From Pelomonas sp. Root1217 (GTDB taxonomy: Bacteria > Pseudomonadota > Gammaproteobacteria > Burkholderiales > Burkholderiaceae_C): 64,000 bases of DNA. Location: positions 496,946-560,945 of the forward strand of contig NZ_LMDC01000028.1 in assembly GCF_001425705.1 (NCBI RefSeq), read 5' to 3'. Below are positions 35,821-49,649 of the stretch, piece by piece. How positions within the stretch are numbered: position 1 is the first letter of the stretch; every line of letters begins with the position of its first letter. The position numbers were made by a program, and so were the translations under genes. Under the pieces are notes generated by a model. The model saw nothing but the letters and a program-made list of their open reading frames with translations, was not told where the DNA came from and did not search any database.

Positions 35821-35824
<4 letters not shown>

Positions 35825-37488
35825 CCCTGCACGGGCACGCTGATCTCGAACCAGAACCGGCTGCCCTGGGCCAGCCGGCTCTCCAGCTTGATTTCGCCGC
35901 CCATCATGCGCACCAGCTGCCGGCTGATGGCCAGGCCCAGGCCCGTGCCGCCGACACGCTGCTCGGCATTGCCGGCCTGCTCGAAGGGCTCGAACAGGCG
36001 GTAGACCTGGTCGTCGGCGATGCCCACGCCGGTGTCCTGCACTTCGAAGCACAGCCGCACATGGCCCGGCTCCGTGTCGGCCAAGGGTGGCAAGGCGCGC
36101 GCCATCAGCAGCACGCCGCCGACATGGGTGAACTTGACCGCGTTGCCCAGCAGGTTCAGCAGGATCTGGTTGAGCCGCTTTTCGTCGGTCAGCACCACAG
36201 CAGGCAGATTCGGGTCGAGCTGCAGATCGAGCGTGATGTGCTTGCCCTCGGCCATGACGCGCACGATGTCGATGACGGCCTGCAGGCGCGGGACCAGCTC
36301 GATCGGGCCGATGCGCAACTCGGCCTTGCCGGCCTCGATGCGCGACAGATCCAGGATGTCGACGATCAACGTCAACAGGTGCTGGCCGCTGCTGTGAATG
36401 ATGTCCAGGCCGTTGCGTTGCTTCGGCGTCAGGCCGTCGTCCATCTTCAGGATCTGCGCGTAGCCCATGACGGCGTTCAGCGGCGTGCGCAGCTCGTGGC
36501 TCATGCGCGCCAGGAACTGGCTCTTGGCGCGGCTGGCGATCTCGGCACGCTCCTTGGCGTCGCTGAGTTCCAGCGTCCGCTCGGTCACCAGGTCCTCGAG
36601 GTGGTCACGGTGGGCGCCGAGCTCGGTCTCGCGCTCCTGCAGCGCCGTGATCATGCGGTTGAAGGTCTCGGCCATCGCCGCGATGTCGCGCGGGCCGCCG
36701 GCCGGCGCACGGGCATCGTTGTCGCCCAGCTCGACCCTCTCCATGGCCTCGGACAAGGCGCCCAGCGGCCGCGTCAGGCGCAGGATGAGAAAGCGCACCG
36801 CCAGCAGGAAGATGGTTGCAAACAGCACGGCCACGCCGAAGTTGGCGAGGAAGAGCGAGGCCTGGGTGCGGTGCAGCGTCGCCTTGCTCAGCACGATGCG
36901 CACATGGCCGAGCAGTTGCGCGGGGCGCAGCGTCACGTCGAATGGTGAGGCCTCGGGGCGGGTCCAGACCGGTGCAGCGAAGGCCCAGCTGTCTTCCGTC
37001 TCCTGGTCGAGCCAGGGTTCGCTGGCCGCCGGGTCGGGCACGGCCGGTGACGTGGTCGTGGGCAGGCGGTCCCGCTCGGGGCCGAGCGCCAGCAGCAGGC
37101 GGCCCTTGGTGTCGCGGATCTCGATGCCCATCACATCCGGGAAGGCCAGCGAGGCGCGCACCGCCTCCTCGGCGTTGTCGGCGGAGGCGTACAGCAGGGC
37201 CAATGAGCTGTTGGACGCCAGGTTGGCTGCCACACGACCGCCCTGCTCCATCAGCATGGCCCGCACCTGGCGACCACCTTGCCAGGCGTTGACGACCGCC
37301 ATCAGCAAGGCCAGGCAGAGCGTGCCCAGCGCGACGGCGACGCTGAGATGGCGGCGGAACGAGGTCTCGCGCAACCAGCGCGCGTAGACGCGCAGCGGCC
37401 ACGACCGCTGCGGCGGCGCGGCCACAGGCACGCTTTCATCCCGAAGGATGAGGGGCGGCTGGCTGTCCAGTGGAACGGGTGGCGTCAC
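35821..37488 (-). CDS. Membrane sensor histidine kinase
   Basis: A 555-residue kinase with TM1 at about 48-66, a periplasmic CHASE8-like domain (72-205, with ASNSSLALLYASADNAEEAV), TM2 at about 213-235, HAMP to about 290, a short coiled coil, then HisKA with phospho-acceptor His331 in MSHELRTPLNAV and a full HATPase_c (NLLGNAVKFT, DTGVGIADD, GGTGLGLAIS). No receiver domain is attached and no response regulator is adjacent. It lies nine bases after the binding-protein gene upstream, so that protein may be its periplasmic ligand sensor. The stop overlaps the uvrA2 stop in CTAG. Confidence 0.88.
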
Positions 37489-37497
37489 TCTCGAACC

Positions 37498-38472
37498 TCA
37501 GCTGGAGGGGTAGACCAGATCGAATCCCGACTGCACGGAGGCGACGTCAAGCCCCAGGTGCGCGGCGGTGCGGATGTTGATGGCGGCGCGGGCCTGGCGC
37601 AACGGCAGCACACCCGCCGCGCCCGATTTGGGGTTGGACGCGAGGCGTTGGGCAGACACGGCCAGTGAACGCCCGAGCTCATGGTTGTCCGGGTAGAGCG
37701 AAAACAACGCGCCGCGCTTCACATGCGCCAGGTGGCTGGAGAACACCGCGATATTGCGGTTCCAGCCTTCCTTGAGTACCAGCGTGAGCACGACGTTGTC
37801 ATCCACGGTCGTCGGGTCCTGCGGCAGCCAGACGGCATCGCGGGCCGGGTCGGCCGAGGCCAGCAACTGGGTGTAGGCACGCAGAGCCTCGGCCTGGTCG
37901 GCGGCTTCCTGGGCCAGCAGCTCCAGCCCTTCGGTGCGGGCCGCCTCGCGCGCCAGCTTTACCAGCCAAGCGTTCAGCTTGGGGTCGTAGACCAAATGCA
38001 CACGACGCATGGACGGCTTCAGGCGCCGCAGCCGTGCGAGCAGCAGGGCCGGGTCGGGCGCCAGTGTGTGGATGGGAAAGTTGCGAGCCTCGGACTCCTG
38101 AACCGACACGACGCAGCCGACCATCACGGCCAGTTCGTCGGCCAGCGCCGCCGCGACGCGCATGCCGCCGCGCCCGAGGCCGATCAATACCTTGACGTCT
38201 CGCTTGCGCACGTCGTCGGCGACCTGTGCCGGATTGGCGTTGCTGGCCAACGTGAAGGTCGTGACCGCGCCGCCGAGCCTGTCCTCGATGCCTTCGATGA
38301 TGGTGGTGAAGACCTGGCGAAAGGGCTCGCCGAGCTCCGGGTAGACAACCACCAGCGAGCGCCCGAGCTCCGCCGCCGCGGCTGAACCGCCGGTCAACAC
38401 CACGGCACCGCCCAGGGCCTGTTGCAACAAGGCGCGGCGCGTGGCGGGGCGGAGGCAACCGGGCTCAGTCAA
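37498..38472 (-). CDS. Periplasmic ABC-type substrate-binding protein paired with a sensor kinase
   Basis: A 324-residue protein resembling the ABC_sub_bind family (PF04392) of periplasmic binding proteins: VVYPELGEPFRQVFTTIIEGIEDRL at the start, VHLVYDPKLNAWLVKLA in the middle and GVLPLRQARAAINIRTAAHLGLD at the end. The signal sequence carries a double Arg ([16 protein letters not shown]), so Tat export is possible. No permease or ATPase is near; instead a histidine kinase follows, which suggests signalling rather than transport. The start (TTG 38472) is uncertain because no ribosome-binding site is visible. Confidence 0.72.
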   Translation of the reverse strand: MTEPGCLRPATRRALLQQALGGAVVLTGGSAAAAELGRSLVVVYPELGEPFRQVFTTIIEGIEDRLGGAVTTFTLASNANPAQVADDVRKRDVKVLIGLGRGGMRVAAALADELAVMVGCVVSVQESEARNFPIHTLAPDPALLLARLRRLKPSMRRVHLVYDPKLNAWLVKLAREAARTEGLELLAQEAADQAEALRAYTQLLASADPARDAVWLPQDPTTVDDNVVLTLVLKEGWNRNIAVFSSHLAHVKRGALFSLYPDNHELGRSLAVSAQRLASNPKSGAAGVLPLRQARAAINIRTAAHLGLDVASVQSGFDLVYPSS

Positions 38473-38923: not shown

Positions 38924-41047
38924 ATGAGACCTTTCTTTGGCTTGGTGATCCTATGCGGCGTCTGCTGGGCAGCCGGGCTGCCGGCCGCGTTTGCGCAGCC
39001 ACCGAGCGAGGAAGAGGAACTGGCGCAGATCTACGGCGACAAGACGACCATCAGCATCGCCACCGGCGCAGCCCAGGCCTTGCGCCGCGCACCCGCCGTC
39101 GCCACGGTGATCACTGCCCAGGACATTGCCGCGATGGGCGCGACGGGCATCGACGAGGTGCTGGAGAGCGTGCCCGGCATCCATGTCAGCCGCAGCAACA
39201 ACTCCTTTGCGCCGCTGTACCTGATCCGAGGCATCCACAGCGAATTCAATGCCCAAACGCTGATGCTGCTCAACGGCGTGCCACTGACCACCCTGTTCGT
39301 CGGCAACCGCGGCCTGGGCTGGGGCGACATGCCGGTGGAGAACATCGCCCGCATCGAGATCATCCGCGGGCCGGGCTCGGCGCTCTATGGCGCCGACGCG
39401 TTCTCGGGCGTCATCAACGTCATCACCAAGACGGCGGCCGACGTGGCGGGCACGGATATCGGCGCCCGCCTGGGCTCGTTCCGCAGCCGGGACGGCTGGC
39501 TGCAATACGGCGGAAAGGTGGGCAGCTATGACGTGGCCGCTTACCTGCGCGTCGGCAGCACCGATGGCCAGCGCGAGATCGTCGGCGCCGACCAGCAGAG
39601 CTTTCTGGACGGCCTCTTCGGCACCAAGGCCAGCCTGGCGCCCGGGTCCATGAACGTCGGCTTCAAGGCCCTGGATGCCAACGCCGACGTCAGCCGCGAC
39701 AAGCTGCGCCTGCGCGGCAGCTACAAGCTGCGCGACGATCTGCAGACGGGCGCCGGCGTCGCCGGTGCGCTGGACCCGGTCGGGCGCTACAGGATCGAGC
39801 GAGTTACCTCGGACTTCTCCTGGTCGGACATCGAGCTCGGCAGCGACTGGCGAGGCACCGCGACGGCCAGCTACCTGCACTACAAGCAGACCTTCAACGT
39901 GCCGCTGCAACTGTTCCCGCCAGGCGCCTTTGGTGGATCGTTTCCCAAGGGCATGCTGGGCGCGCCCAATACCTGGGAGCGGCAGATCCGGCTTGCGGCC
40001 GTAGCGTCCTACGGCGGCTTCAAGGGCCACAACCTGCGCATCGGCGTCGGGCATGACGACCTCGACATGTACCGCACGCAGGAGTTCAAGAACTTCACCA
40101 TCATCCCCAGCGGCCCCGCTGTCGGCCTGCCCGTGCCGCTGCCCAGCGGCCAGGTCCAGGAATTCCCCCCCGCGGAGTCCTTCGCCGAGCCGCACCGACG
40201 CGCGGTGAGCTACCTGTACGTACAGGACGAATGGAGCGTGGCCAAGGATTGGACGCTGACGGCGGGCCTGCGCCACGACCGCTACTCGGATTTCGGCAGC
40301 ACCACCAACCCGCGCGCGGCGCTGGTGTGGGACGCCAACCTCGACCTTACGGTCAAGTTGCTGTACGGACGCGCCTTCCGCGCGCCGGCTTTCACCGAGC
40401 AGTACAGCATCAACAATCCCGTCATCCGCGGCAACGACGCGTTGAAGCCCGAGACGATCAGCACCTGGGAGGGGGCGTTTTCCTGGCAAGTCCGCTCTGA
40501 CACCCAGCTCAACCTGAGCCTGTTCCGCTACGACATGAAGGACATCATCCGCACGAGCGACACCGGCGGCGGGACGGCCCAGTTCAACAACATCGGCGCC
40601 CAGCACGGGACTGGCCTGGAACTGGACGCGCAATGGGACGTGACGCGCAAGCTGCGCCTGAGTGGCAACCTGGCCCTGCAACGCTCCACCGAGGACATGA
40701 CGGGCACTGACGCGGGCTATGCACCGCGCCAGCACCTGAACGCCCGGGCCGACTGGAGCATCGTGAACGGCTGGCTGCTCAGCGGGCAGGTCAACTACGT
40801 GGCCGAGCGCAAGCGCTCCGCGGGCGACGTGCGAGCACCCATCCCTGACTACACCACCGCGGACATCACCTTGCGCACCGGCAATGGCAAGAGCAGTGGC
40901 AAGGGCGCCTGGGACTTCGCGGTCTCGGTGCGCAACCTGTTCAACGCCGACGCCCGCGAGCCCAGCATGGCGCCCGGGCTGGCCCTGCCGGGCGACATCC
41001 CGCTGGCGCGGCGTTCACTCTACGTTCAGGCCGCCTACCACCTCTGA
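38924..41047 (+). CDS. TonB-dependent outer membrane receptor
   Basis: A 707-residue outer-membrane receptor with signal peptide (1-24, LPAAFA), a plug domain (about 35-155) containing APAVATVITAQDIAAMGATGIDEVLESVPG and IEIIRGPGSALYGADAFSGVINVITK, and a 22-strand barrel that ends in SLYVQAAYHL. The plug looks like that of BtuB/FepA/CirA-type receptors, so the ligand is probably a metal chelate or cobalamin-like compound, but this cannot be told by eye. It faces a sensor kinase and binding protein gene across a shared control region. Its last 33 bases overlap the end of the convergent P450 gene. Confidence 0.88.
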   Translation: MRPFFGLVILCGVCWAAGLPAAFAQPPSEEEELAQIYGDKTTISIATGAAQALRRAPAVATVITAQDIAAMGATGIDEVLESVPGIHVSRSNNSFAPLYLIRGIHSEFNAQTLMLLNGVPLTTLFVGNRGLGWGDMPVENIARIEIIRGPGSALYGADAFSGVINVITKTAADVAGTDIGARLGSFRSRDGWLQYGGKVGSYDVAAYLRVGSTDGQREIVGADQQSFLDGLFGTKASLAPGSMNVGFKALDANADVSRDKLRLRGSYKLRDDLQTGAGVAGALDPVGRYRIERVTSDFSWSDIELGSDWRGTATASYLHYKQTFNVPLQLFPPGAFGGSFPKGMLGAPNTWERQIRLAAVASYGGFKGHNLRIGVGHDDLDMYRTQEFKNFTIIPSGPAVGLPVPLPSGQVQEFPPAESFAEPHRRAVSYLYVQDEWSVAKDWTLTAGLRHDRYSDFGSTTNPRAALVWDANLDLTVKLLYGRAFRAPAFTEQYSINNPVIRGNDALKPETISTWEGAFSWQVRSDTQLNLSLFRYDMKDIIRTSDTGGGTAQFNNIGAQHGTGLELDAQWDVTRKLRLSGNLALQRSTEDMTGTDAGYAPRQHLNARADWSIVNGWLLSGQVNYVAERKRSAGDVRAPIPDYTTADITLRTGNGKSSGKGAWDFAVSVRNLFNADAREPSMAPGLALPGDIPLARRSLYVQAAYHL

Positions 41048-42184
41048 GGTCACCTCCGAGGCCTCGAAGCGCACCGGCAGGCTGCTGAAGCCGAACAGCA
41101 CGAACGACGACAGCGGCTCGGCCGCGCGTTGCTCGTCCAGGCGCAACCCGCTGAAGCGACGCAGCAAGGTGGCGATGGCCACGCGCGCTTCCAGCCGGCC
41201 CAAGCCTGCGCCGAGGCAATAGTGGATGCCATGGCCGAAGCTCAGGTGCCGGTTGACGGTGCGAGTGATGTCGAAGCTGTCCGCGTGCGGGAAGGCCGAC
41301 TCGTCACGGTTGCCCGAGGCGTTGAAGGTCATCACCTGCTGGCCGGCCTTGATGAGCTGGCCGCCCAGCACCACGTCGCACTTGGCGATGCGGGCGAAGA
41401 ACTGGAACGGCGTGTTGAAGCGCAGCGCTTCTTCAATGGCCGACGGGAGCAGTCCGGGGTCCGCGATCAGCTGGGCGAGCGCTTTGGGATGGGACAGCAG
41501 CAGCTGCAGCGTGTTGCCGATGAGGTTGGCCGTGGTCTCGAAGCCGGCGATGAGCAGCAGCCGGCAGGTGCTGGCGACTTCCTGCAGCGTGAGCTTCTCG
41601 CCTTCTACTTCTGCAGCCAGCAGGCCGCTGACGAGGTCCTGGCGGGGCGTGTCGCGACGCTTCTCGATGAGGTCGGCGAGGTAGGCGTCGAGTTCGTCGA
41701 CGGCCTGCGTCAGCTCGGGCGCCGGCACCTGGCCCATCAGCTCCATCTCCGCGGCGCGGATCGCAGGCACCGACCATTGCTTGAACTTGTCGCGGTCAGC
41801 CACCGGCAGGCCCAGCAACTCGGCGATCACCGTGACCGGCAGCGTGAAGGCCAGGTCGCTGACGAGGTCCATGCGGCCGGTGCTCTCCACACGGTCCAGC
41901 AGCTCATCGGTGATGGCCTTCACACTGGGCTCCAGGTCAGCAACGACCTTGCTCGTGAAGGCGCGCGCCACCAGGCGGCGGAACTGCGTGTGCCGCGGCG
42001 GGTCCATGAAGACCATCATCTTGCCGTCCGACAGGTCCGACGAAAAGGTCTTCGCATCGCCCAGCACCGTCTGGATGTCGTGGTAGCCGTAAACCTCCCA
42101 GACACCCAGCGCGTCGTTGAAATGCACGGGTGTCGTGGCGCGCATGTGCGCGTAGTGCGGGTAAGGGTTCATGTGTGCGGTCAT
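41015..42184 (-). CDS. Cytochrome P450
   Basis: A 389-residue soluble bacterial P450. Heme ligand: the cysteine in FGHGIHYCLGAGLGRLEARV. I-helix oxygen-activating motif: AGFETTANL. K-helix ExxR: EEALR. The N-terminus is short (MTAHMNPYPHYAHMRA) and cytosolic. It resembles CYP107-like enzymes of secondary metabolism. It is the last gene of the four-gene coupled operon with a ThDP enzyme and two citrate-synthase-like proteins, overlapping the second by ATGA, so it probably hydroxylates or otherwise oxidises their product. No ferredoxin or reductase gene is nearby. Confidence 0.92.
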   Translation of the reverse strand: MTAHMNPYPHYAHMRATTPVHFNDALGVWEVYGYHDIQTVLGDAKTFSSDLSDGKMMVFMDPPRHTQFRRLVARAFTSKVVADLEPSVKAITDELLDRVESTGRMDLVSDLAFTLPVTVIAELLGLPVADRDKFKQWSVPAIRAAEMELMGQVPAPELTQAVDELDAYLADLIEKRRDTPRQDLVSGLLAAEVEGEKLTLQEVASTCRLLLIAGFETTANLIGNTLQLLLSHPKALAQLIADPGLLPSAIEEALRFNTPFQFFARIAKCDVVLGGQLIKAGQQVMTFNASGNRDESAFPHADSFDITRTVNRHLSFGHGIHYCLGAGLGRLEARVAIATLLRRFSGLRLDEQRAAEPLSSFVLFGFSSLPVRFEASEVTSEVVGGLNVE

Positions 42185-42990
42185 GGTTGTGATGGAGCAG
42201 TGGGCCAGCGGCGTTCGGCCGGACCTTCATAGGCGATGTGGGCGCAAGACATCGGGAACACCGTGCCCGGCGCCCGCTCGGCGGCCTCGATGAAGCAAGG
42301 CGACATGCCGGCCAGGAACACCGGCACCTGGAAGTGGTGCATCTCGGTCGGCGAGAAGCCCAGGTCGGCGCACAGGGCTGACATCAGCGCCGCGTAGTTC
42401 ATGCGCAGCTTGGGATTGCACTGCACCAGCAGCCGCTCGACTTCGAGCGCGATGTGCAGATGCGGGCCGTCGTCCAGCCGAAGTTCGCGGGCAATGCCCA
42501 GCACCCAAGGCAGGCGCTCGTCGATGCTGGCGATCGGGCGGCCGTAGCCGTAGATGCGGCCCTTCGCCAACTCGGCGTCGACGAACTCGTTCAAGGCTCC
42601 GATGCCATGCTGCTGCGCGCGGATCAGGAAGTCGATGCTGCTGACATAGGGGTGGCCGCCATAGATGGTGGCCTCTGACATCGCCAGCGCCGCTGCGATG
42701 CCCAGGCCCGGCGTGCTGCGTACCGAGCCGGCCAGCGCGGCCGTGCGGTTGTTCCAGATGCGCGCGTCCGGGTAGCTGGTGCAGACCCACAGGGCATGCA
42801 GCAGCTTGATCTGCGGCTCGGTGTGATGGCGCCCAGTGATGCCGAGCACATACAGCGCCATCCAGTCCAGATGACGCAGCTCGGCATGCAGGTCCTGGCC
42901 GCGGAAGACGGCGCGGGTGCCGACGAAGGCCTGGCCCATACGGGTGCTCATGCGGTCAGCGCTGCTCACCAGTGCTTCGGGTCCGTTCAT
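42181..42990 (-). CDS. Citrate-synthase-like protein with altered active site (second of pair)
   Basis: A 269-residue protein of the citrate synthase / citryl-CoA lyase fold. The C-terminal family ending is clear: FSPTEMHHFQVPVFLAGMSPCFIEA then IAYEGPAERRW. The usual catalytic positions are changed: the HGG stretch is IYGGHP, the GFGH loop is GYGRPIAS, and the N-V-D-F segment with the catalytic Asp is RMNYAAL. It therefore may be a structural partner, or may catalyse a different C-C bond reaction. It overlaps the first citrate-synthase-like gene and the P450 gene by four bases each. Confidence 0.75.
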   Translation of the reverse strand: MNGPEALVSSADRMSTRMGQAFVGTRAVFRGQDLHAELRHLDWMALYVLGITGRHHTEPQIKLLHALWVCTSYPDARIWNNRTAALAGSVRSTPGLGIAAALAMSEATIYGGHPYVSSIDFLIRAQQHGIGALNEFVDAELAKGRIYGYGRPIASIDERLPWVLGIARELRLDDGPHLHIALEVERLLVQCNPKLRMNYAALMSALCADLGFSPTEMHHFQVPVFLAGMSPCFIEAAERAPGTVFPMSCAHIAYEGPAERRWPTAPSQP

Positions 42991-43775
42991 GCCTCACCTC
43001 GCGGATCGTCCTGCAGGTCCAGGGCGAAGAACGGGAAGCTCTTGTGGCCCAACTCCTTTTGTTCCAGCGCATGCGCGGCCGCGCCGGGCAGCCGCAGCAG
43101 CAGGTGCAGCATTTCGCCCTGGTCGGGCGTGAAGCCCAGGTCGACAAAGGCGGCGGCGGCGACGCCAGTCATGGCCAGGCCACGGCCCGCGGCGGCTTCC
43201 AGCGGGACCCGGCTCTGGAGCAGCCAGGGCAGGCAGGGGCCGTCGCTCAGCGCGGCGAGCACCTGCAGCGTCCGCTCAACGACGCCGCCGCACCGTGCAG
43301 CATGCAGCTCGAACCCTGGTGGGTGGTCGGCCTGCGGCCAGATGCCGGCGCGCTCGGCAGCCGGTGTGGCCAGCGCACGCTCCCAGGCAGACGGGCTGCG
43401 GCCGCAGTCTTTGAACAGCTGTATCGCGGCCCAGACCTCACGCGCACCGCCTGCCTTGCCGGCGCCCACCGACAGTGCGGCGATCAGCGCCGCGGCAGCG
43501 GTCGAGCCGCCAACGCCGGCGCACATCGCGGCATGCACCGCCGCATCGCGCGGCCCAGGGTTGGACAGCGCAAGGGCCAACGCCTCCAGCATTCGCGCCT
43601 GCCCGGCGGACGGTGCTTCGCCGCGGAACAACAGAAAGAGCATGTCCACCCAGCGTGCTTGACCCAGCATGTCGCCATAGACGTCATAGCCGTGGCAGAG
43701 CGCGCGGCGAGCGGCGAAGCTGTTGTCGGGTTCCGGTTCCTCGTGCCAGATGCGCGTTCGGACCTGCGCTGTCAT
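42987..43775 (-). CDS. Citrate-synthase-like protein with altered active site (first of pair)
   Basis: A 262-residue protein of the same superfamily, with the small-domain-like start RALCHGYDVYGDMLGQARWVDML and LLFRGEAPSAGQARMLEALALAL, then VHAAMCAGVGGST. Where citrate synthases read GPLHGGANE this reads GKAGGAREVW, so the first catalytic histidine is absent. The C-terminal LGFTPDQGEMLHLLLRLPGAAAHALEQ fits the family end. It probably forms a heteromer with the second protein. The start at 43775 overlaps the ThDP enzyme stop by four bases. Which acyl groups it handles is unknown. Confidence 0.75.
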   Translation of the reverse strand: MTAQVRTRIWHEEPEPDNSFAARRALCHGYDVYGDMLGQARWVDMLFLLFRGEAPSAGQARMLEALALALSNPGPRDAAVHAAMCAGVGGSTAAAALIAALSVGAGKAGGAREVWAAIQLFKDCGRSPSAWERALATPAAERAGIWPQADHPPGFELHAARCGGVVERTLQVLAALSDGPCLPWLLQSRVPLEAAAGRGLAMTGVAAAAFVDLGFTPDQGEMLHLLLRLPGAAAHALEQKELGHKSFPFFALDLQDDPRGEA

Positions 43776-45625
43776 CGCGCCGTTCCCAGCGTCTTCATAC
43801 GCAGGTTCATCGGCGGCACTTCCTCGCCGTCGATGCGGATGTCCAGCAGCGTCGGCCCCTGGCGCGACAGCAGCGCGTCGAAGTCCAGCGCGTCCAGGTC
43901 CTTTGGCGAGCGGATCACGTGTCCGGGGATGCCCATGGCAGCGGCCATCATGGCGAAGTCGACCTTGGGCAGCTGGAAGCCGATGGGTTCTGCGCCGGCC
44001 AGGCGCTGGCCATGCTTGACCATGCCCAGGGCCCCGTCGTTGAGCACCACATAGAGCACCGGCAGGCCCAGCTCAGCGGCCACCGTGATCTCCTGGCCGT
44101 TCATCAGGTAGCTGCCGTCTCCCGTCAGGCAGACGACCGGGCAGCGCCGGTTGGCCATCGCAATGCCGACGGCGGAGCCGATGGCCCAGCCCATGGGCGC
44201 GAAGTCCATCGTCACGCGCAGCCAGCTGGAACTGCGCGTGCGCCTTTCCTTGCCGGCCGGCAGATAGGCGCCACCCGGCATGCGGGCGCGCTGGTCATGC
44301 GGCGCCAGGTAGTGCACGGCCCAGGCCGCGCTGTTGCCGGCGTCGGCTACGAAACGGGTCTGCGGCGGGCAGCGCTCGCTCAAGGTCGCCAGCAGGCGCT
44401 GCGGCTTCACCGGCGCGCTGTCGCTGTGGATGGCTTGCGGGCTGTCGACCATGGCCTCATAGGCCTGGCGCGCCGTCTGCGGATGCATGAAAGGCAGCAG
44501 CTGCCCTTCCGGACCGTTCTGCGATGGCGCCAGCAGCGTCATCAGTTGCTCGCAGACCGACTTGATGTGGCCGCGCACATGCAGCCGCGCCATTTGCGAG
44601 CGCATCAGGTTCTCGTCGCTGTCGTCCACGTGGACGAGGCGGCTGTTCAGCAGCGCGGCCGACCAGCCCCCGCTGTTGAACTCGCCAAAGCCCGTGCCCA
44701 GGGCGATGACCAGGTCAGGCTCGCTCGACAGCAGCTCGGCCGCGCTGGCGTGGCCACCAAAACCGAACACGCCGCGGTAACGCGGGTGGCGCGGGTTGAT
44801 GAAGCCCTTGCCGTCAGGCGTCGTGATGAAGCTGCCGTCGGTCAGCTGCACCAGCTGCATCAATTCGTTGGCGGCATCGCCGCAACCGTCACCGATCAAC
44901 CAGACGGGCTGGCGGGCCGAGAACAGCAGGCGTGCGAGCTGGCGCACGGCGGGAAGGTCGACCATGGCCGGCGCGCGGCGCAGCAGGCCGGCGAAGTCCG
45001 GCGTCTCCATGTCGTCGGGCAGGGGTTCGCGCAGGATGTCCACCGGGATGGACAGGTGGCTCGGCCCGCTCGGTGCGCGCTGGGCCTGCATCAGTGCATT
45101 GAAGAGCTTGGTGGGCAGTTGCTCGACATGCGAGACCAGCGAGTTGTAGCGCGTGCACGGGCGGAACATCGCCATCGTGTTGATGCCGGTGCAGCTGGAC
45201 TCCTGCAGCGCGCCCTTGCCGAAATTCTTGATCGGCGGCTGGCCGGTGATGACCAGCATCGGCACGTTGTTGTCATAGGCGCAGGCCACGCCGGTGATCA
45301 GGTTGGTGGCACCCGGCCCGGAGGTGGCGATGCACACGCCGATGCGGCCGGTCTCGCGGGCATAGCCGTCGGCCATGTAAGCCGCACCTTGTTCGTTGCG
45401 GGCCACGACGGCCTGTGGGCCACCGCGGCGGGCGCTGCGCGCGAGGGCGTTGTAGAGCGGCTCGATGGCGCCACCCGGCACGCCGAAGACGTATTCCACG
45501 CCCAGCGCGGCCAGCGCATCGACGAGCAGGTCCGCTGCGTCGCGCGCGGCAGGTTCGCGCGCCCCATCCGACGCCGGATGGGACGCCTCGGTATAGAACG
45601 GGGCGAGAGCAGTATTTGATTCCAC
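43772..45625 (-). CDS. Acetolactate-synthase-like thiamine-diphosphate enzyme
   Basis: A protein of about 617 residues with the three-domain layout of ThDP enzymes. The catalytic Glu is in ARNEQGAAYMADGYAR, the VFGVPGGAIEPLYNAL start and SGPGATNLITGVACAY follow the acetolactate synthase pattern, and the metal/ThDP motif is GDGSYLMNGQEITVAAELG...LNDGALGMV. No ilvH small-subunit gene is adjacent and no branched-chain genes are near, so a secondary metabolism role is more likely than valine synthesis. The start is uncertain: GTG 45625 is used, but ATG 45663 in frame is possible and neither has a clear ribosome site. It leads the coupled operon. Confidence 0.85.
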   Translation of the reverse strand: MESNTALAPFYTEASHPASDGAREPAARDAADLLVDALAALGVEYVFGVPGGAIEPLYNALARSARRGGPQAVVARNEQGAAYMADGYARETGRIGVCIATSGPGATNLITGVACAYDNNVPMLVITGQPPIKNFGKGALQESSCTGINTMAMFRPCTRYNSLVSHVEQLPTKLFNALMQAQRAPSGPSHLSIPVDILREPLPDDMETPDFAGLLRRAPAMVDLPAVRQLARLLFSARQPVWLIGDGCGDAANELMQLVQLTDGSFITTPDGKGFINPRHPRYRGVFGFGGHASAAELLSSEPDLVIALGTGFGEFNSGGWSAALLNSRLVHVDDSDENLMRSQMARLHVRGHIKSVCEQLMTLLAPSQNGPEGQLLPFMHPQTARQAYEAMVDSPQAIHSDSAPVKPQRLLATLSERCPPQTRFVADAGNSAAWAVHYLAPHDQRARMPGGAYLPAGKERRTRSSSWLRVTMDFAPMGWAIGSAVGIAMANRRCPVVCLTGDGSYLMNGQEITVAAELGLPVLYVVLNDGALGMVKHGQRLAGAEPIGFQLPKVDFAMMAAAMGIPGHVIRSPKDLDALDFDALLSRQGPTLLDIRIDGEEVPPMNLRMKTLGTAR

Positions 45626-45854
45626 GTTGCAGCAGTCGATAGACACCGCACCGGAAGGCCGCATGGCGCTGCGAACAGCGCCATGCACCTGCTTGTCGGC
45701 ACGACATCGGGAGAGATGAATCCACCCACGGTGGACCCCGAACGGCCGCCGGGCAAACACCCGAACGACCTTGCCCCTCCCTGCGTGCGCTTGGGGCGCC
45801 GGCGCTGACTACACCTGGCCCTGCAACATCTAATGGCTGCGCATGAATACGTTT

Positions 45855-45894
45855 CCGCAACCGCACAACAACCGCAACTGTATCTAGTTGCAAC
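45855..45894 (-). promoter_or_regulatory. Palindrome and direct repeats upstream of the ThDP/P450 operon
   Basis: An 18-base element GCAACT-GTATCT-AGTTGC (45874-45891) is palindromic in its outer six bases, and GTTGCAAC at 45887-45894 is itself a perfect palindrome. On the minus strand GTTGCGG occurs twice (45872-45878 and 45855-45861), 17 bases apart. The cluster is about 230 bases upstream of the ThDP enzyme start and reads as a regulator-binding region. The remainder of the gap (45626-45937) shows no gene. Confidence 0.45.
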
Positions 45895-48169: not shown

Positions 48170-48649
48170 TCAGTTCAGGCCCGCCTTGTCCAGCCCGAAC
48201 ATCTTGTCCGCCGAGCCCGGCACATTGCGCACCGCCACATTCATGCGATTCCAGCCGTTGATGGCAGCAACGCGCCAAGTCAGCTCTGACAGTTCCTCGG
48301 GCGGGAAATGCTCGCTGACCTCGACATAGGCAGCGTCGGAGACGCCTTCGGCCGGGATGCGCGTCAACAGCTCCGTCCATGCCAGGGCGGCACGCTCCTT
48401 GGGCGTGAACAGCGGCGACTCGCGCCAGATGGCGACGTGGTGCAGGCGCAGCTCGCGCTCGCCGTGCATCTTGGCCTGCTTGACGTGCATGTCCAGACAG
48501 AAGGCGCAGCCGTTGAGCTGCGACGCGCGGATGTCGATCAGCACGGCCAGCGTCTTGTCCATGCGGAAGGCCATGCTGAAGTCCAGGTACTTCTTGGACA
48601 GGTCGGCGGACTGGCGGAAGTAGTCGAGGCGGGCTTGGTGCGTGCTCAT
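48170..48649 (-). CDS. AhpD-like carboxymuconolactone decarboxylase family protein
   Basis: A 159-residue alkylhydroperoxidase-D-type protein. The redox-active pair and the proton relay are seen in NGCAFCLDMHVKQA (CxxC followed by His), within an all-helical CMD domain, and the C-terminal AAINGWNRMNVAVRNVPG fits the family. The start ATG 48649 has AAGGA upstream. It lies directly downstream of an ECF41 sigma gene and an ECF41-type promoter, which is the usual context for this enzyme class with that sigma group. It probably reduces peroxides or quinone-type compounds. Confidence 0.88.
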   Translation of the reverse strand: MSTHQARLDYFRQSADLSKKYLDFSMAFRMDKTLAVLIDIRASQLNGCAFCLDMHVKQAKMHGERELRLHHVAIWRESPLFTPKERAALAWTELLTRIPAEGVSDAAYVEVSEHFPPEELSELTWRVAAINGWNRMNVAVRNVPGSADKMFGLDKAGLN

Positions 48650-48692
48650 GATGATGTCCTTAGGGTGTTGCGGGCCGGCGAAATCGCCGGCC

Positions 48693-49649
48693 TCATACAC
48701 AAGACGGATCAGCCTCGCCGGTTGTGACACGCGCGGCGATCGCGGCGAGTTTGTCGGGGTTGCGCTGGATGTAGACGGCACCGACCTGGCCCGGCTCGGC
48801 GGCCGGCGCGAGCGCGATGGTCTGCACGAGGCGGCCGCCGGCGCTGTCGTCGACGATCAGCAGGCCGGGCAGGCCGTTGACCGTGGTGGGCACCAGCCGC
48901 CAGCCCTGGCTGGTGGACATCTGCGCAAAGCCGATGAAGGTGCGTGCGATGACGGCGCCGCCATGCAGCGGCTTGGGCACCGCGCTGACCTTGCCGCCGC
49001 CATCGGCCATCAGCACGGCGTCCTCGCTCAGCAACTGGGCCAGGGCCGACACGTCCTGGCTGCGCACCGCGTCCATGAAGGCGGTCACCAGCCGGTCGGC
49101 CTCCTCCTTGGCCACCTCGCGGCGCGCATAGTCGGCCTTGATGTTCTTGCGCGCCCGGCTGATGAGCTGGCGGCAACTGGCCTCGTTGCGGTCCAGGTGG
49201 CGGGCGATCTCGTCGTAGTCGAGGTCGAACACGTCGTGCAGCAGGAAGGCCGCGCGCTCCAGCGGTGACAGGCGCTCCAGCGCCAGCATGAAGGCGATGG
49301 ACACGTCCTGGGCGAACTCCGCCTGCTTCTCGGGCCCGGGCGTCCAGCCGAACAGGGCTTCGTCCTCCAGCATGGGCTCCGGCAGCCAGACGCCCACATA
49401 GTGCTCGCGCTGCACGGCGGCCGAGCGCAGCTTGTCCAGGCACAGGTTGGTCACCAGCCGCGACAGGAAGGCGCCCTCGTGCTGGACGGTGGCTACATCC
49501 ACCTCGGCCCAGCGCAGCCAGGCCTCCTGCACGATGTCTTCGGCTTCGGCGCGCGAGCCGAGCATGCGGTAGGCCAGCGCGCGCAGGCGGCGCGCGTGGT
49601 CACGGTCGTAGCGCAGGGCGCGGGCAGTGGGCGAGAGATCGTCGGTCAT
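48693..49649 (-). CDS. ECF41-type sigma factor with C-terminal SnoaL-like domain
   Basis: A 318-residue extracytoplasmic-function sigma factor. Region 2 has RLRALAYRMLGSRAEAEDIVQEAWLRW and region 4 has LSPLERAAFLLHDVFDLDYDEIARHLDRNEASCRQLISRARKN. It carries the ECF41 hallmarks: WLPEP in the linker, then a fused SnoaL-like domain with DGGGK and the late NPDKL motif. In this group the extension replaces an anti-sigma factor. ATG 49649 is used; a TTG at 49670 has AGGAGG nearby, but the predicted transcription start is so close that it would be almost leaderless. An exact promoter of its own type lies just upstream, so it is probably autoregulated. Confidence 0.93.
   Translation of the reverse strand: MTDDLSPTARALRYDRDHARRLRALAYRMLGSRAEAEDIVQEAWLRWAEVDVATVQHEGAFLSRLVTNLCLDKLRSAAVQREHYVGVWLPEPMLEDEALFGWTPGPEKQAEFAQDVSIAFMLALERLSPLERAAFLLHDVFDLDYDEIARHLDRNEASCRQLISRARKNIKADYARREVAKEEADRLVTAFMDAVRSQDVSALAQLLSEDAVLMADGGGKVSAVPKPLHGGAVIARTFIGFAQMSTSQGWRLVPTTVNGLPGLLIVDDSAGGRLVQTIALAPAAEPGQVGAVYIQRNPDKLAAIAARVTTGEADPSCV
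48703..48729 (-). promoter_or_regulatory. ECF41-type promoter for the AhpD-like gene
   Basis: On the minus strand TGTCACA (48723-48729) is followed after exactly 16 bases by CGTC (48703-48706). This is the known ECF41 consensus. It lies inside the last codons of the sigma gene, giving a leader of about 48 bases to the AhpD-like start. Confidence 0.85.

What the first reader, a model, noticed from the sequence alone, without database searches (positions are those of the whole stretch)
41015..45625. Four-gene coupled operon: ThDP enzyme, two altered citrate-synthase-like proteins, P450
Three consecutive ATGA overlaps tie an acetolactate-synthase-like enzyme, two different citrate-synthase-fold proteins and a P450 into one translation unit, with no branched-chain or TCA genes nearby. 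Both citrate-synthase-like proteins lack the usual catalytic His/Asp residues (GKAGGARE and IYGGHP replace the HGG stretch; RMNYAAL replaces the Asp segment) but keep the family ending. A plausible reading is a heteromeric C-C bond-forming enzyme fed by a ThDP ligase and finished by oxidation: a small secondary metabolite pathway I do not recognise. The sequence shows the order, coupling and motif losses; the pathway is inference.
Basis: partly seen in the sequence, partly recalled or inferred. Interest (0 to 1): 0.82.

Follow-up and report, generated by a model that had tools for sequence, protein, structure and literature searches.

The report
Candidate self-made bacterial signal system
A set of linked genes in environmental bacteria appears to build a small molecule with two rebuilt citrate-enzyme-like proteins and then take up and sense that same molecule, which would be an undescribed kind of bacterial chemical signalling.

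Summary
In detail: ThDP enzyme, CS1, CS2 and P450 are joined by three 4-base ATGA overlaps, and the window's two citrate-synthase-fold proteins lack the known catalytic residues. Both are predicted to fold like citryl-CoA lyase. Their altered active-site segments are on average better conserved than the rest, so they look repurposed rather than decayed. In 80 homologous loci P450 is an accessory (5 of 80). The recurring unit is ThDP-CS1-CS2 with a TonB receptor, a periplasmic PF04392 binding protein and a HAMP sensor whose output varies (histidine kinase, hybrid kinase, GGDEF-EAL). SDR, sulfotransferase and P450 are optional. In Roseateles, CS1-CS2-(P450)-TonB swaps as one cassette between conserved ThDP and binding-protein/sensor genes. 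Some genomes carry only receiving genes; two carry ThDP with a sulfotransferase and no CS2. Best reading: a self-made small molecule is taken up by its matched receptor and sensed in the periplasm, like quorum sensing or siderophore signalling, by a synthesis route that my eight library searches did not turn up. The molecule, the direction of the pathway and the CS1-CS2 reaction are inferred, not shown.

The parts
43772..45625 (-). ThDP-dependent enzyme of the acetolactate-synthase superfamily, 617 aa from GTG at 45625 (longest ORF starts at 45760)
   Evidence: Pfam TPP_enzyme N/M/C above cut-off; best PDB match BbmA 8x3x E 1.7e-90; GTGGA(A/T)TC start conserved in 9 Roseateles-group loci, window included; Glu123 of P0003 invariant in the 4 aligned sequences
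42987..43775 (-). CS1, citryl-CoA-lyase-fold protein, 262 aa, catalytic positions replaced (NPGPRD, GKAGGARE, GFELH, AMTG)
42181..42990 (-). CS2, citryl-CoA-lyase-fold protein, 269 aa, catalytic positions replaced (YPDARIWNNR, IYGGHP, GYGRP..DER, MNYAA)
41015..42184 (-). cytochrome P450, 389 aa, accessory tailoring gene
   Evidence: PF00067 E 1.1e-36; FGHGIHYCLG segment read directly (haem-Cys motif recalled); present in 5 of 80 homologous loci
38924..41047 (+). TonB-dependent outer-membrane receptor, convergent, 33-nt 3' overlap with P450
   Evidence: PF00593 and PF07715; relative in 53 of 56 full-length loci; next-best match in the genome only 31% over 197 aa
37498..38472 (-). periplasmic substrate-binding protein, PF04392 type
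   Evidence: relative in 43 of 56 full-length loci
35821..37488 (-). membrane sensor histidine kinase (periplasmic region, HAMP, HisKA, HATPase)
   Evidence: N-terminal sensor plus HAMP region 42-52% identical to 8 sensors, several with other outputs, at other loci
45874..45891 (.). perfect inverted repeat GCAACT-N6-AGTTGC upstream of ThDP, inside a stretch conserved in Roseateles; possible regulator site, weak evidence
   Evidence: 1 match in the window; 0.14 expected, but 12 of 100 shuffles had at least one; pattern taken from the window itself; the repeat is not perfect in the other 8 loci

Best explanation
The operon is the synthesis half of a self-sensing small-molecule system. The ThDP enzyme makes a core C-C coupled (acyloin-type) unit (inferred from family). 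CS1 and CS2 form an obligate heteromer with a rebuilt pocket that adds or reshapes a second unit (gene pairing and pocket conservation shown; complex and chemistry inferred). Optional SDR, P450 or sulfotransferase tailor it. The product leaves the cell, is taken up through its matched TonB receptor, is bound by the periplasmic PF04392 protein and read by a HAMP sensor that drives a kinase or c-di-GMP output. The TonB receptor and CS1-CS2(-P450) are exchanged together as a specificity cassette, while ThDP, binding protein and sensor stay fixed.
For: Of 56 loci longer than 20 kb, ThDP 55, TonB 53, binding protein 43, sensor 44. A distant lineage has TonB-CS1-CS2-ThDP-SBP-HK as one same-strand run, read in full for L148. 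One sensor family carries several outputs. Cassette: window against Pelomonas Root1237 (L038) shows ThDP 98, SBP 96, HK 99% but CS1 63, CS2 66, TonB 60%; breakpoints at the ThDP/CS1 junction and in the first part of TonB; strongly supported tree conflict. Partial Mantel CS1-TonB given ThDP 0.42, CS2-TonB 0.44, 0 of 2000 permutations each. Receiving genes without close ThDP or CS2 in 3 near-complete genomes. Another lineage couples ThDP-CS1-CS2 to a different sensor kinase plus a LuxR-type regulator. No recurrent inner-membrane importer noticed.
Against: No molecule, export route or expression data. 13 of 56 full-length loci show no binding protein at my threshold and 3 no TonB. The binding protein hardly varies with TonB (partial r 0.22, 4 of 2000) or with CS1 (0.09, 227 of 2000), though it should if it contacts the variable part of the ligand. 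ThDP keeps some correlation with CS1, CS2 and TonB of its own (0.28, 0.27, 0.31; 0 of 2000 each), so the two blocks are not fully separate. In Geobacter-type loci ThDP and TonB are only 30-40% identical to the window's, so their equivalence rests on position. TonB receptors mostly serve metallophores or nutrients (recalled).
Confidence: 0.6

Rival explanations
1. A metallophore: ThDP plus CS1-CS2 make a hydroxycarboxylate-type chelator that TonB reimports with its metal, the sensor reporting the metal-chelator level.
For: The TonB receptor's nearest solved relatives are the colicin I (Cir), BtuB, PirA, enterobactin and FecA receptors; several hosts are iron-cycling genera such as Gallionella, Sideroxydans and Geobacter.
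Against: No Fur-box-like site above background upstream of ThDP or TonB in the window (9 and 10 of 19; background mean 9.8, 95th percentile 11). No recurrent ABC permease or ATPase noticed. No siderophore synthetase family among the 47 proteins scanned with Pfam, although L153 has an AMP-binding enzyme next to CS2.
Confidence: 0.16
2. A catabolic locus: TonB imports an outside compound, the sensor detects it as a nutrient, and ThDP plus CS1-CS2 cleave it.
For: TonB, binding protein and sensor also fit nutrient sensing; citryl-CoA lyase is a lyase; receiver-only genomes fit loss of degradation too.
Against: No inner-membrane transporter recurs. A PF13469 sulfotransferase, a building enzyme by family, stands in L183 and L187 where no CS2 is found and accompanies CS1-CS2 in 9 of 80 loci.
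Confidence: 0.13
3. CS1 and CS2 are catalytically dead and act as regulatory or scaffold subunits of the ThDP enzyme, as acetolactate synthase small subunits do.
For: Three (CS1) or four (CS2) of the four catalytic positions are replaced in all aligned rows; a ThDP gene is in 55 of 56 full-length loci.
Against: The altered segments are on average better conserved than the rest (0 of 261 and 0 of 268 circular shifts as conserved); CS1-CS2 swaps against a 98% identical ThDP partner; two ThDP loci exist in genomes without CS2.
Confidence: 0.12
4. One reading: a four-gene secondary-metabolite pathway finished by the P450, with no special link to receptor or sensor.
For: Four-gene coupling in the window and the same four genes in L034, L035, L036 and, with an SDR, L061.
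Against: P450 not found in 75 of 80 loci; TonB, binding protein and sensor recur.
Confidence: 0.05

Closest known systems
Citryl-CoA lyase (6hxp; NCBIfam PRK06224 subfamilies)
   Same: fold, length of about 265 aa, C-terminal AHALEQ-type ending in CS1 (H235 and E238 in 71 of 71 rows)
   Different: catalytic His/Asp positions replaced (all four in CS2; three in CS1, the fourth variable); two different paralogues encoded as a pair; scores far below family cut-offs
Acetolactate synthase and related ThDP enzymes (PDB BbmA, CsmA, biosynthetic ALS)
   Same: three ThDP domains, conserved glutamate and GDG...ND segment (motif recalled)
   Different: below every NCBIfam cut-off among the 25 of 59 models shown; no small subunit among the neighbours scanned; sits in a receptor-sensor locus
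LuxP-LuxQ type quorum sensing
   Same: periplasmic binding protein plus membrane kinase; sensing of a self-made small molecule is inferred here
   Different: different binding-protein family, outer-membrane TonB step, different synthesis genes (LuxPQ details recalled)
Siderophore biosynthesis-receptor loci such as pyoverdine/FpvA
   Same: product-making genes and the TonB receptor diversify together (pyoverdine recalled)
   Different: no siderophore synthetase among the proteins scanned, no Fur-like site found, periplasmic binding protein and HAMP sensor alongside
CqsA/LqsA alpha-hydroxyketone signalling
   Same: a C-C coupled hydroxyketone is one plausible product type
   Different: those synthases are PLP enzymes (recalled); none was seen among the proteins scanned here

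Membership tests
Citryl-CoA lyase / citrate synthase | fold | tested here: met
   Foldseek top hit 6hxp for both models, E 7.6e-08 and 4.2e-10
Citryl-CoA lyase / citrate synthase | catalytic His (DHG, HGG, GHR) and Asp (NxDG) residues (positions recalled) | tested here: not met
   CS2: none of the four in 72 of 72 rows; CS1: DHG, GHR and Asp positions replaced in 71 of 71 rows, HGG position His in 9 of 71, Ala in the window; alignment
Citryl-CoA lyase / citrate synthase | curated score cut-off | tested here: not met
   PF00285 14.3 of 27 bits for CS1, none for CS2; NCBIfam best 55.2 of 245 and 31.8 of 193
Acetolactate synthase | ThDP N, M and C domains | tested here: met
Acetolactate synthase | equivalog cut-off TIGR00118 | tested here: not met
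   305.9 of 538.35 bits
Quorum-sensing system | synthesis genes linked to dedicated sensing genes | tested here: met
   linkage met; that the genes act as synthesis and sensing is inferred
Quorum-sensing system | self-made diffusible molecule that changes the sensor's output | not testable with these tools
   needs mutants, spent medium and a reporter
Siderophore system | TonB receptor linked to biosynthesis | tested here: met
   53 of 56 full-length loci
Siderophore system | Fur-box control | tested here: not met
   best 9 and 10 of 19 positions, background mean 9.8 (window only, consensus recalled)
Siderophore system | metal chelation by the product | not testable with these tools
   product unknown

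The most novel reading that the evidence does not exclude
A new class of bacterial autoinducers: a ThDP-made core elaborated by a heteromeric citryl-CoA-lyase-fold synthase with a non-classical active site, taken up by a cognate TonB receptor and read by a PF04392-HAMP sensor, with strain-specific dialects set by an exchangeable CS1-CS2-tailoring-receptor cassette and with receiver-only eavesdroppers.
Probability: 0.4. Interest if true: 0.92.

Novelty: new variant of a known kind. Interest (0 to 1): 0.8.

Why it matters
If right, environmental Proteobacteria and Geobacter-type bacteria share an unnoticed chemical language whose dialects can be predicted from sequence. It also gives a natural case of a citrate-synthase fold re-tooled as a pair with conserved new pocket residues, and it suggests what one PF04392-HAMP sensor family listens to, a question that deletion and spent-medium tests could settle.

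Tried and rejected
P450 as core gene: rejected (5 of 80 loci). CS1/CS2 as decayed pseudoenzymes: disfavoured by segment conservation, though I chose the segments after seeing the alignment, intact enzymes would pass the same test, and single segments are weak (CS2 TIYGGHP entropy 1.43 against 1.52 for the rest). Fur control: no site above background. Plasmid carriage: tblastn of CS2 in 72,556 plasmid records gave no match. Literature: eight searches, seen as listings and abstract starts only, no paper opened; none of the listed papers describes the locus as far as the listings show; (BbmA/CsmA names and PDB codes) returned unrelated papers, so the chemistry of BbmA and CsmA stays unknown to me. 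A CS1:CS2 complex was not predicted: the structure tool takes single chains. The M28 peptidase upstream of ThDP was found only in Roseateles-type loci (5 of 80) and was left out. The sulfotransferase-SDR association is weak (7 of 9 against 25 of 71, Fisher p 0.026).
Full report
WHAT WAS CLAIMED AND WHAT IS THERE. The four ORFs are real and on the minus strand: ThDP enzyme 45625(GTG)-43772, CS1 43775-42987, CS2 42990-42181 and P450 42184-41015, each junction a 4-base ATGA overlap. ThDP carries the three TPP-enzyme domains and P450 carries PF00067, all above cut-off. CS1 reaches PF00285 only at 14.3 bits (cut-off 27), CS2 no Pfam family; both reach NCBIfam citryl-CoA lyase models far under cut-off. 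The genome's one PF00285 match lies elsewhere and covers the whole model (E 1.4e-134).

CS1 AND CS2 ARE CITRYL-COA-LYASE FOLDS WITH ALTERED POCKETS. AlphaFold2 models built on 71 (CS1) and 72 (CS2) rows have mean pLDDT 91.4 and 87.1. I gave 70 of 78 usable CS1 rows and 71 of 77 usable CS2 rows from the 80 loci, plus the window, leaving out the others by hand, mostly near-duplicates. Foldseek's best PDB match for both is 6hxp, citryl-CoA lyase (E 7.6e-08 and 4.2e-10), as with profile HMMs (E 1.9e-10 and 1.4e-10). Against members from the same bacterial family with the usual motifs (DHGPQAPS, DVHGGAGE, GFGHRFHPIDPR, MNIDG), the window's CS1 has NPGPRD, GKAGGARE, GFELH and AMTG; CS2 has YPDARIWNNR, IYGGHP, GYGRP with DER, and MNYAA. 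That these are the catalytic positions is recalled knowledge of the family. Row counts: in CS2 the four positions are never His or Asp in 72 rows (Ala 59 of 72; Tyr 70, Phe 2; Arg 72; Ala, Gly, Val or Ser 72). In CS1 the DHG position is Pro 66 or Ala 5 of 71, the GHR position never His (though the next residue is His in 57 of 71), the Asp position never Asp; but the HGG position is variable and is His in 9 of 71 rows, and in the distant rows L152 and L153. So CS1 has lost three positions throughout and the fourth in most rows. New invariants stand in their place: CS1 N72, G74, P75, R76; CS2 D75, R77, W79, N80, N81, R82, R151, P152, D157, E158, R159, N198; some, such as N80 and R82 of CS2, change in distant rows. 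Mean column entropy in the four segments that I chose is 0.67 against 1.39 elsewhere (CS1) and 0.85 against 1.52 (CS2), lower than all 261 and 268 circular shifts. This shows constraint, not chemistry. CS1 and CS2 are found together in 80 of 80 loci and overlap by exactly 4 nt in 71 of 80.

THE UNIT IS LARGER THAN THE FINDING. A scan of the genome collection with the CS2 alignment gave 135 relatives, of which the tool kept the best 80: mostly Betaproteobacteria (Roseateles, Massilia, Rugamonas, Collimonas, Gallionella, Sideroxydans, Rhodocyclales and others), some Geobacter-type genomes and single MAGs filed elsewhere. Of these 80, P450 was found in 5 (L034, L035, L036, L061 in the operon; L085 on the other strand), SDR in 32, ThDP in 76, TonB in 70, the PF04392 binding protein in 50 and a histidine-kinase match in 55 (tblastn E 1e-6; kinase matches include generic ones; many loci are cut by contig ends). 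With stricter bit scores and only the 56 loci longer than 20 kb: ThDP of either type 55, TonB 53, binding protein of either type 43, sensor 44, SDR 24, sulfotransferase 5, P450 3. The three lacking TonB are L064, L076 and L112; thirteen lack the binding protein. In the window these partners are the TonB receptor 38924-41047, the binding protein 37498-38472 and the sensor kinase 35821-37488. The receptor's next-best match in its own genome is 31% over 197 residues at E 3.7e-21, so the association is not a by-product of many alike receptors there. In Geobacter-type loci ThDP (34-40%) and TonB (30-31%) are far from the window's, and their equivalence rests on position.

Wider searches: CS1 in 150 genomes of the family gave 20 matches at E 0.001, of which 4, window included, are 60% identical or more; CS2 in 300 of the order gave 18, 14 of them strong; CS2 in 398 of the phylum gave 22, of which 10 at E 1e-46 or better.

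The sensors share one periplasmic-HAMP region (8 at 42-52% identity to the window's; two distant ones at 21-24%) but differ in output: HAMP-HisKA-HATPase in the window, kinase-receiver in L104, kinase-receivers-Hpt-GGDEF-EAL in L089 and L090, PAS-GGDEF-EAL in L066 and L182. In a distant family L148 shows TonB, CS1, CS2, ThDP, binding protein and hybrid kinase in one same-strand run; L149-L151 show the same order by tblastn, except that no kinase match was found in L149. In a further lineage (L152, L154, L155) ThDP-CS1-CS2 are followed instead by a protein of about 1,730-1,770 aa, scanned in L154 as Ser/Thr-kinase-AAA-GAF-histidine kinase, and a response regulator, in L154 with a LuxR-type domain; no TonB or binding protein was matched there. 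Two unlike sensing modules attached to one synthesis trio is what one expects if the product is sensed.

CASSETTE EXCHANGE. Within Roseateles-type loci, type A (window, L034, L035, L036) has the P450 and type B (L037, L038, L041, L056) lacks it. Between types CS1 is 60-66, CS2 62-68 and TonB 60-62% identical; within types 72-89, 83-91 and 80-93% (TonB of L034 is cut by its contig end and is not in that table). L065, with an SDR, is a third type. Yet the window and L038 (Pelomonas sp. Root1237) are 98% in ThDP, 96% in the binding protein, 99% in the kinase and 94% in the M28 peptidase. DNA identity falls from 98% to 75% within about 300 bases at the ThDP/CS1 junction and returns to 90% or more only beyond the start of TonB, with one 79% stretch between. 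Trees agree: window plus L038 100/100 for ThDP, but window with L034-L036 (100/99, 100/99, 100/100) for CS1, CS2 and TonB. Across 51 loci, window included, that passed my filters (genes long enough, TonB within 3.5 kb, beta-type ThDP), CS1-TonB and CS2-TonB stay correlated given ThDP (0.42, 0.44; 0 of 2000 permutations). Against a clean split, CS1-ThDP and CS2-ThDP given TonB (0.28, 0.27) and ThDP-TonB given CS1 and CS2 (0.31) also reach 0 of 2000. In the 39 loci with a binding protein, ThDP correlates best with it (0.79); binding protein given ThDP is weakly tied to TonB (0.22, 4 of 2000) and CS2 (0.15, 27 of 2000) and not to CS1 (0.09, 227 of 2000). My reading, an inference: CS1-CS2 and tailoring set the variable part that the receptor discriminates; ThDP makes a common part.

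RECEIVERS AND ALTERNATIVE TAILORING. In 300 genomes of the order, strong CS2 matches (E at most 1e-80) occur in 14 and strong binding-protein matches (E at most 1e-60) in 20; all 14 are among the 20. The two draws appear to be the same genomes (same handles), though the tool does not say so. Hypergeometric P 9.6e-20, which ignores relatedness. The six without CS2 (0 of 6 match) split as follows. G186, G219 and G267 have TonB and the binding protein but no close ThDP (G219's best is 31%). G341 is 86% complete and its contigs are short. G210 and G424 have ThDP (58 and 62%), TonB and binding protein with a PF13469 sulfotransferase in or next to the run. Relatives of the L187 sulfotransferase (58-66%) also sit in 9 of the 80 CS loci. 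A sulfotransferase is a building enzyme by family, which speaks against the degradative rival.

WHAT IS SHOWN AND WHAT IS INFERRED. Shown by sequence: the coupling, the residue replacements and their conservation, the recurring neighbourhood, the cassette exchange, the receiver-type loci; the folds are predictions. Inferred: that ThDP and CS1-CS2 build rather than degrade, that they form a complex, that the product is exported and re-imported, that the binding protein and sensor read it, and every chemical step. The strongest points against are the absent molecule, the weak co-variation of the binding protein and the metallophore rival, against which I only have the lack of a Fur-like site in this window and the lack of recurrent importer genes, judged by eye, without a domain scan, from six unassigned ORF families out of the 41 that recur in at least 6 loci.

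KNOWN OR NEW. Eight searches of the held open-access library, seen as listings, showed no paper describing it; most subscription papers are not held, so this is not proof of novelty. It works like a quorum-sensing or siderophore-signalling system, but fails tested membership features of citryl-CoA lyase and of acetolactate synthase, and cannot be filed as a proven signal system until a molecule is shown.

Noticed in passing
window 45874-45891: Perfect inverted repeat GCAACT-N6-AGTTGC within a stretch (GTTNCAA...GATACAGTT) largely conserved upstream of ThDP in 9 Roseateles-group loci; possible regulator site (12 of 100 shuffles also give a match in the window).
   Followed up: partly
window 41015-41047: P450 and TonB genes overlap tail to tail by 33 bases; the same 33-base overlap occurs in L034, L035 and L036, and one of 86 bases in L061.
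   Followed up: partly
L152, L154, L155: ThDP-CS1-CS2 followed by a protein of about 1,730-1,770 aa (Ser/Thr kinase, AAA, GAF, histidine kinase, scanned in L154) and a response regulator; FkbH-like and methyltransferase genes nearby in L152.
   Followed up: partly
L153 8057-9571: AMP-binding enzyme (PF00501) downstream of ThDP-CS1-CS2.
   Followed up: no
L112 3829-10822 and L101 7383-14579: Tandem duplications: L112 holds two CS1 and three CS2 matches, L101 two complete ThDP-CS1-CS2 sets.
   Followed up: no
L061 6626-19237: Two systems side by side: ThDP-SDR-CS1-CS2-P450-TonB and a second ThDP with a sulfotransferase further on.
   Followed up: no
window 48170-49649: Carboxymuconolactone-decarboxylase-type protein next to a sigma-70-family factor, an apparent pair with no seen link to the finding.
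   Followed up: no
L014, L016-L020, L022: Other short citryl-CoA-lyase-like proteins in the same bacterial family with the HGG stretch altered and NATG, NVSG or similar in place of NVDG, suggesting more repurposing in this fold (read by eye).
   Followed up: no
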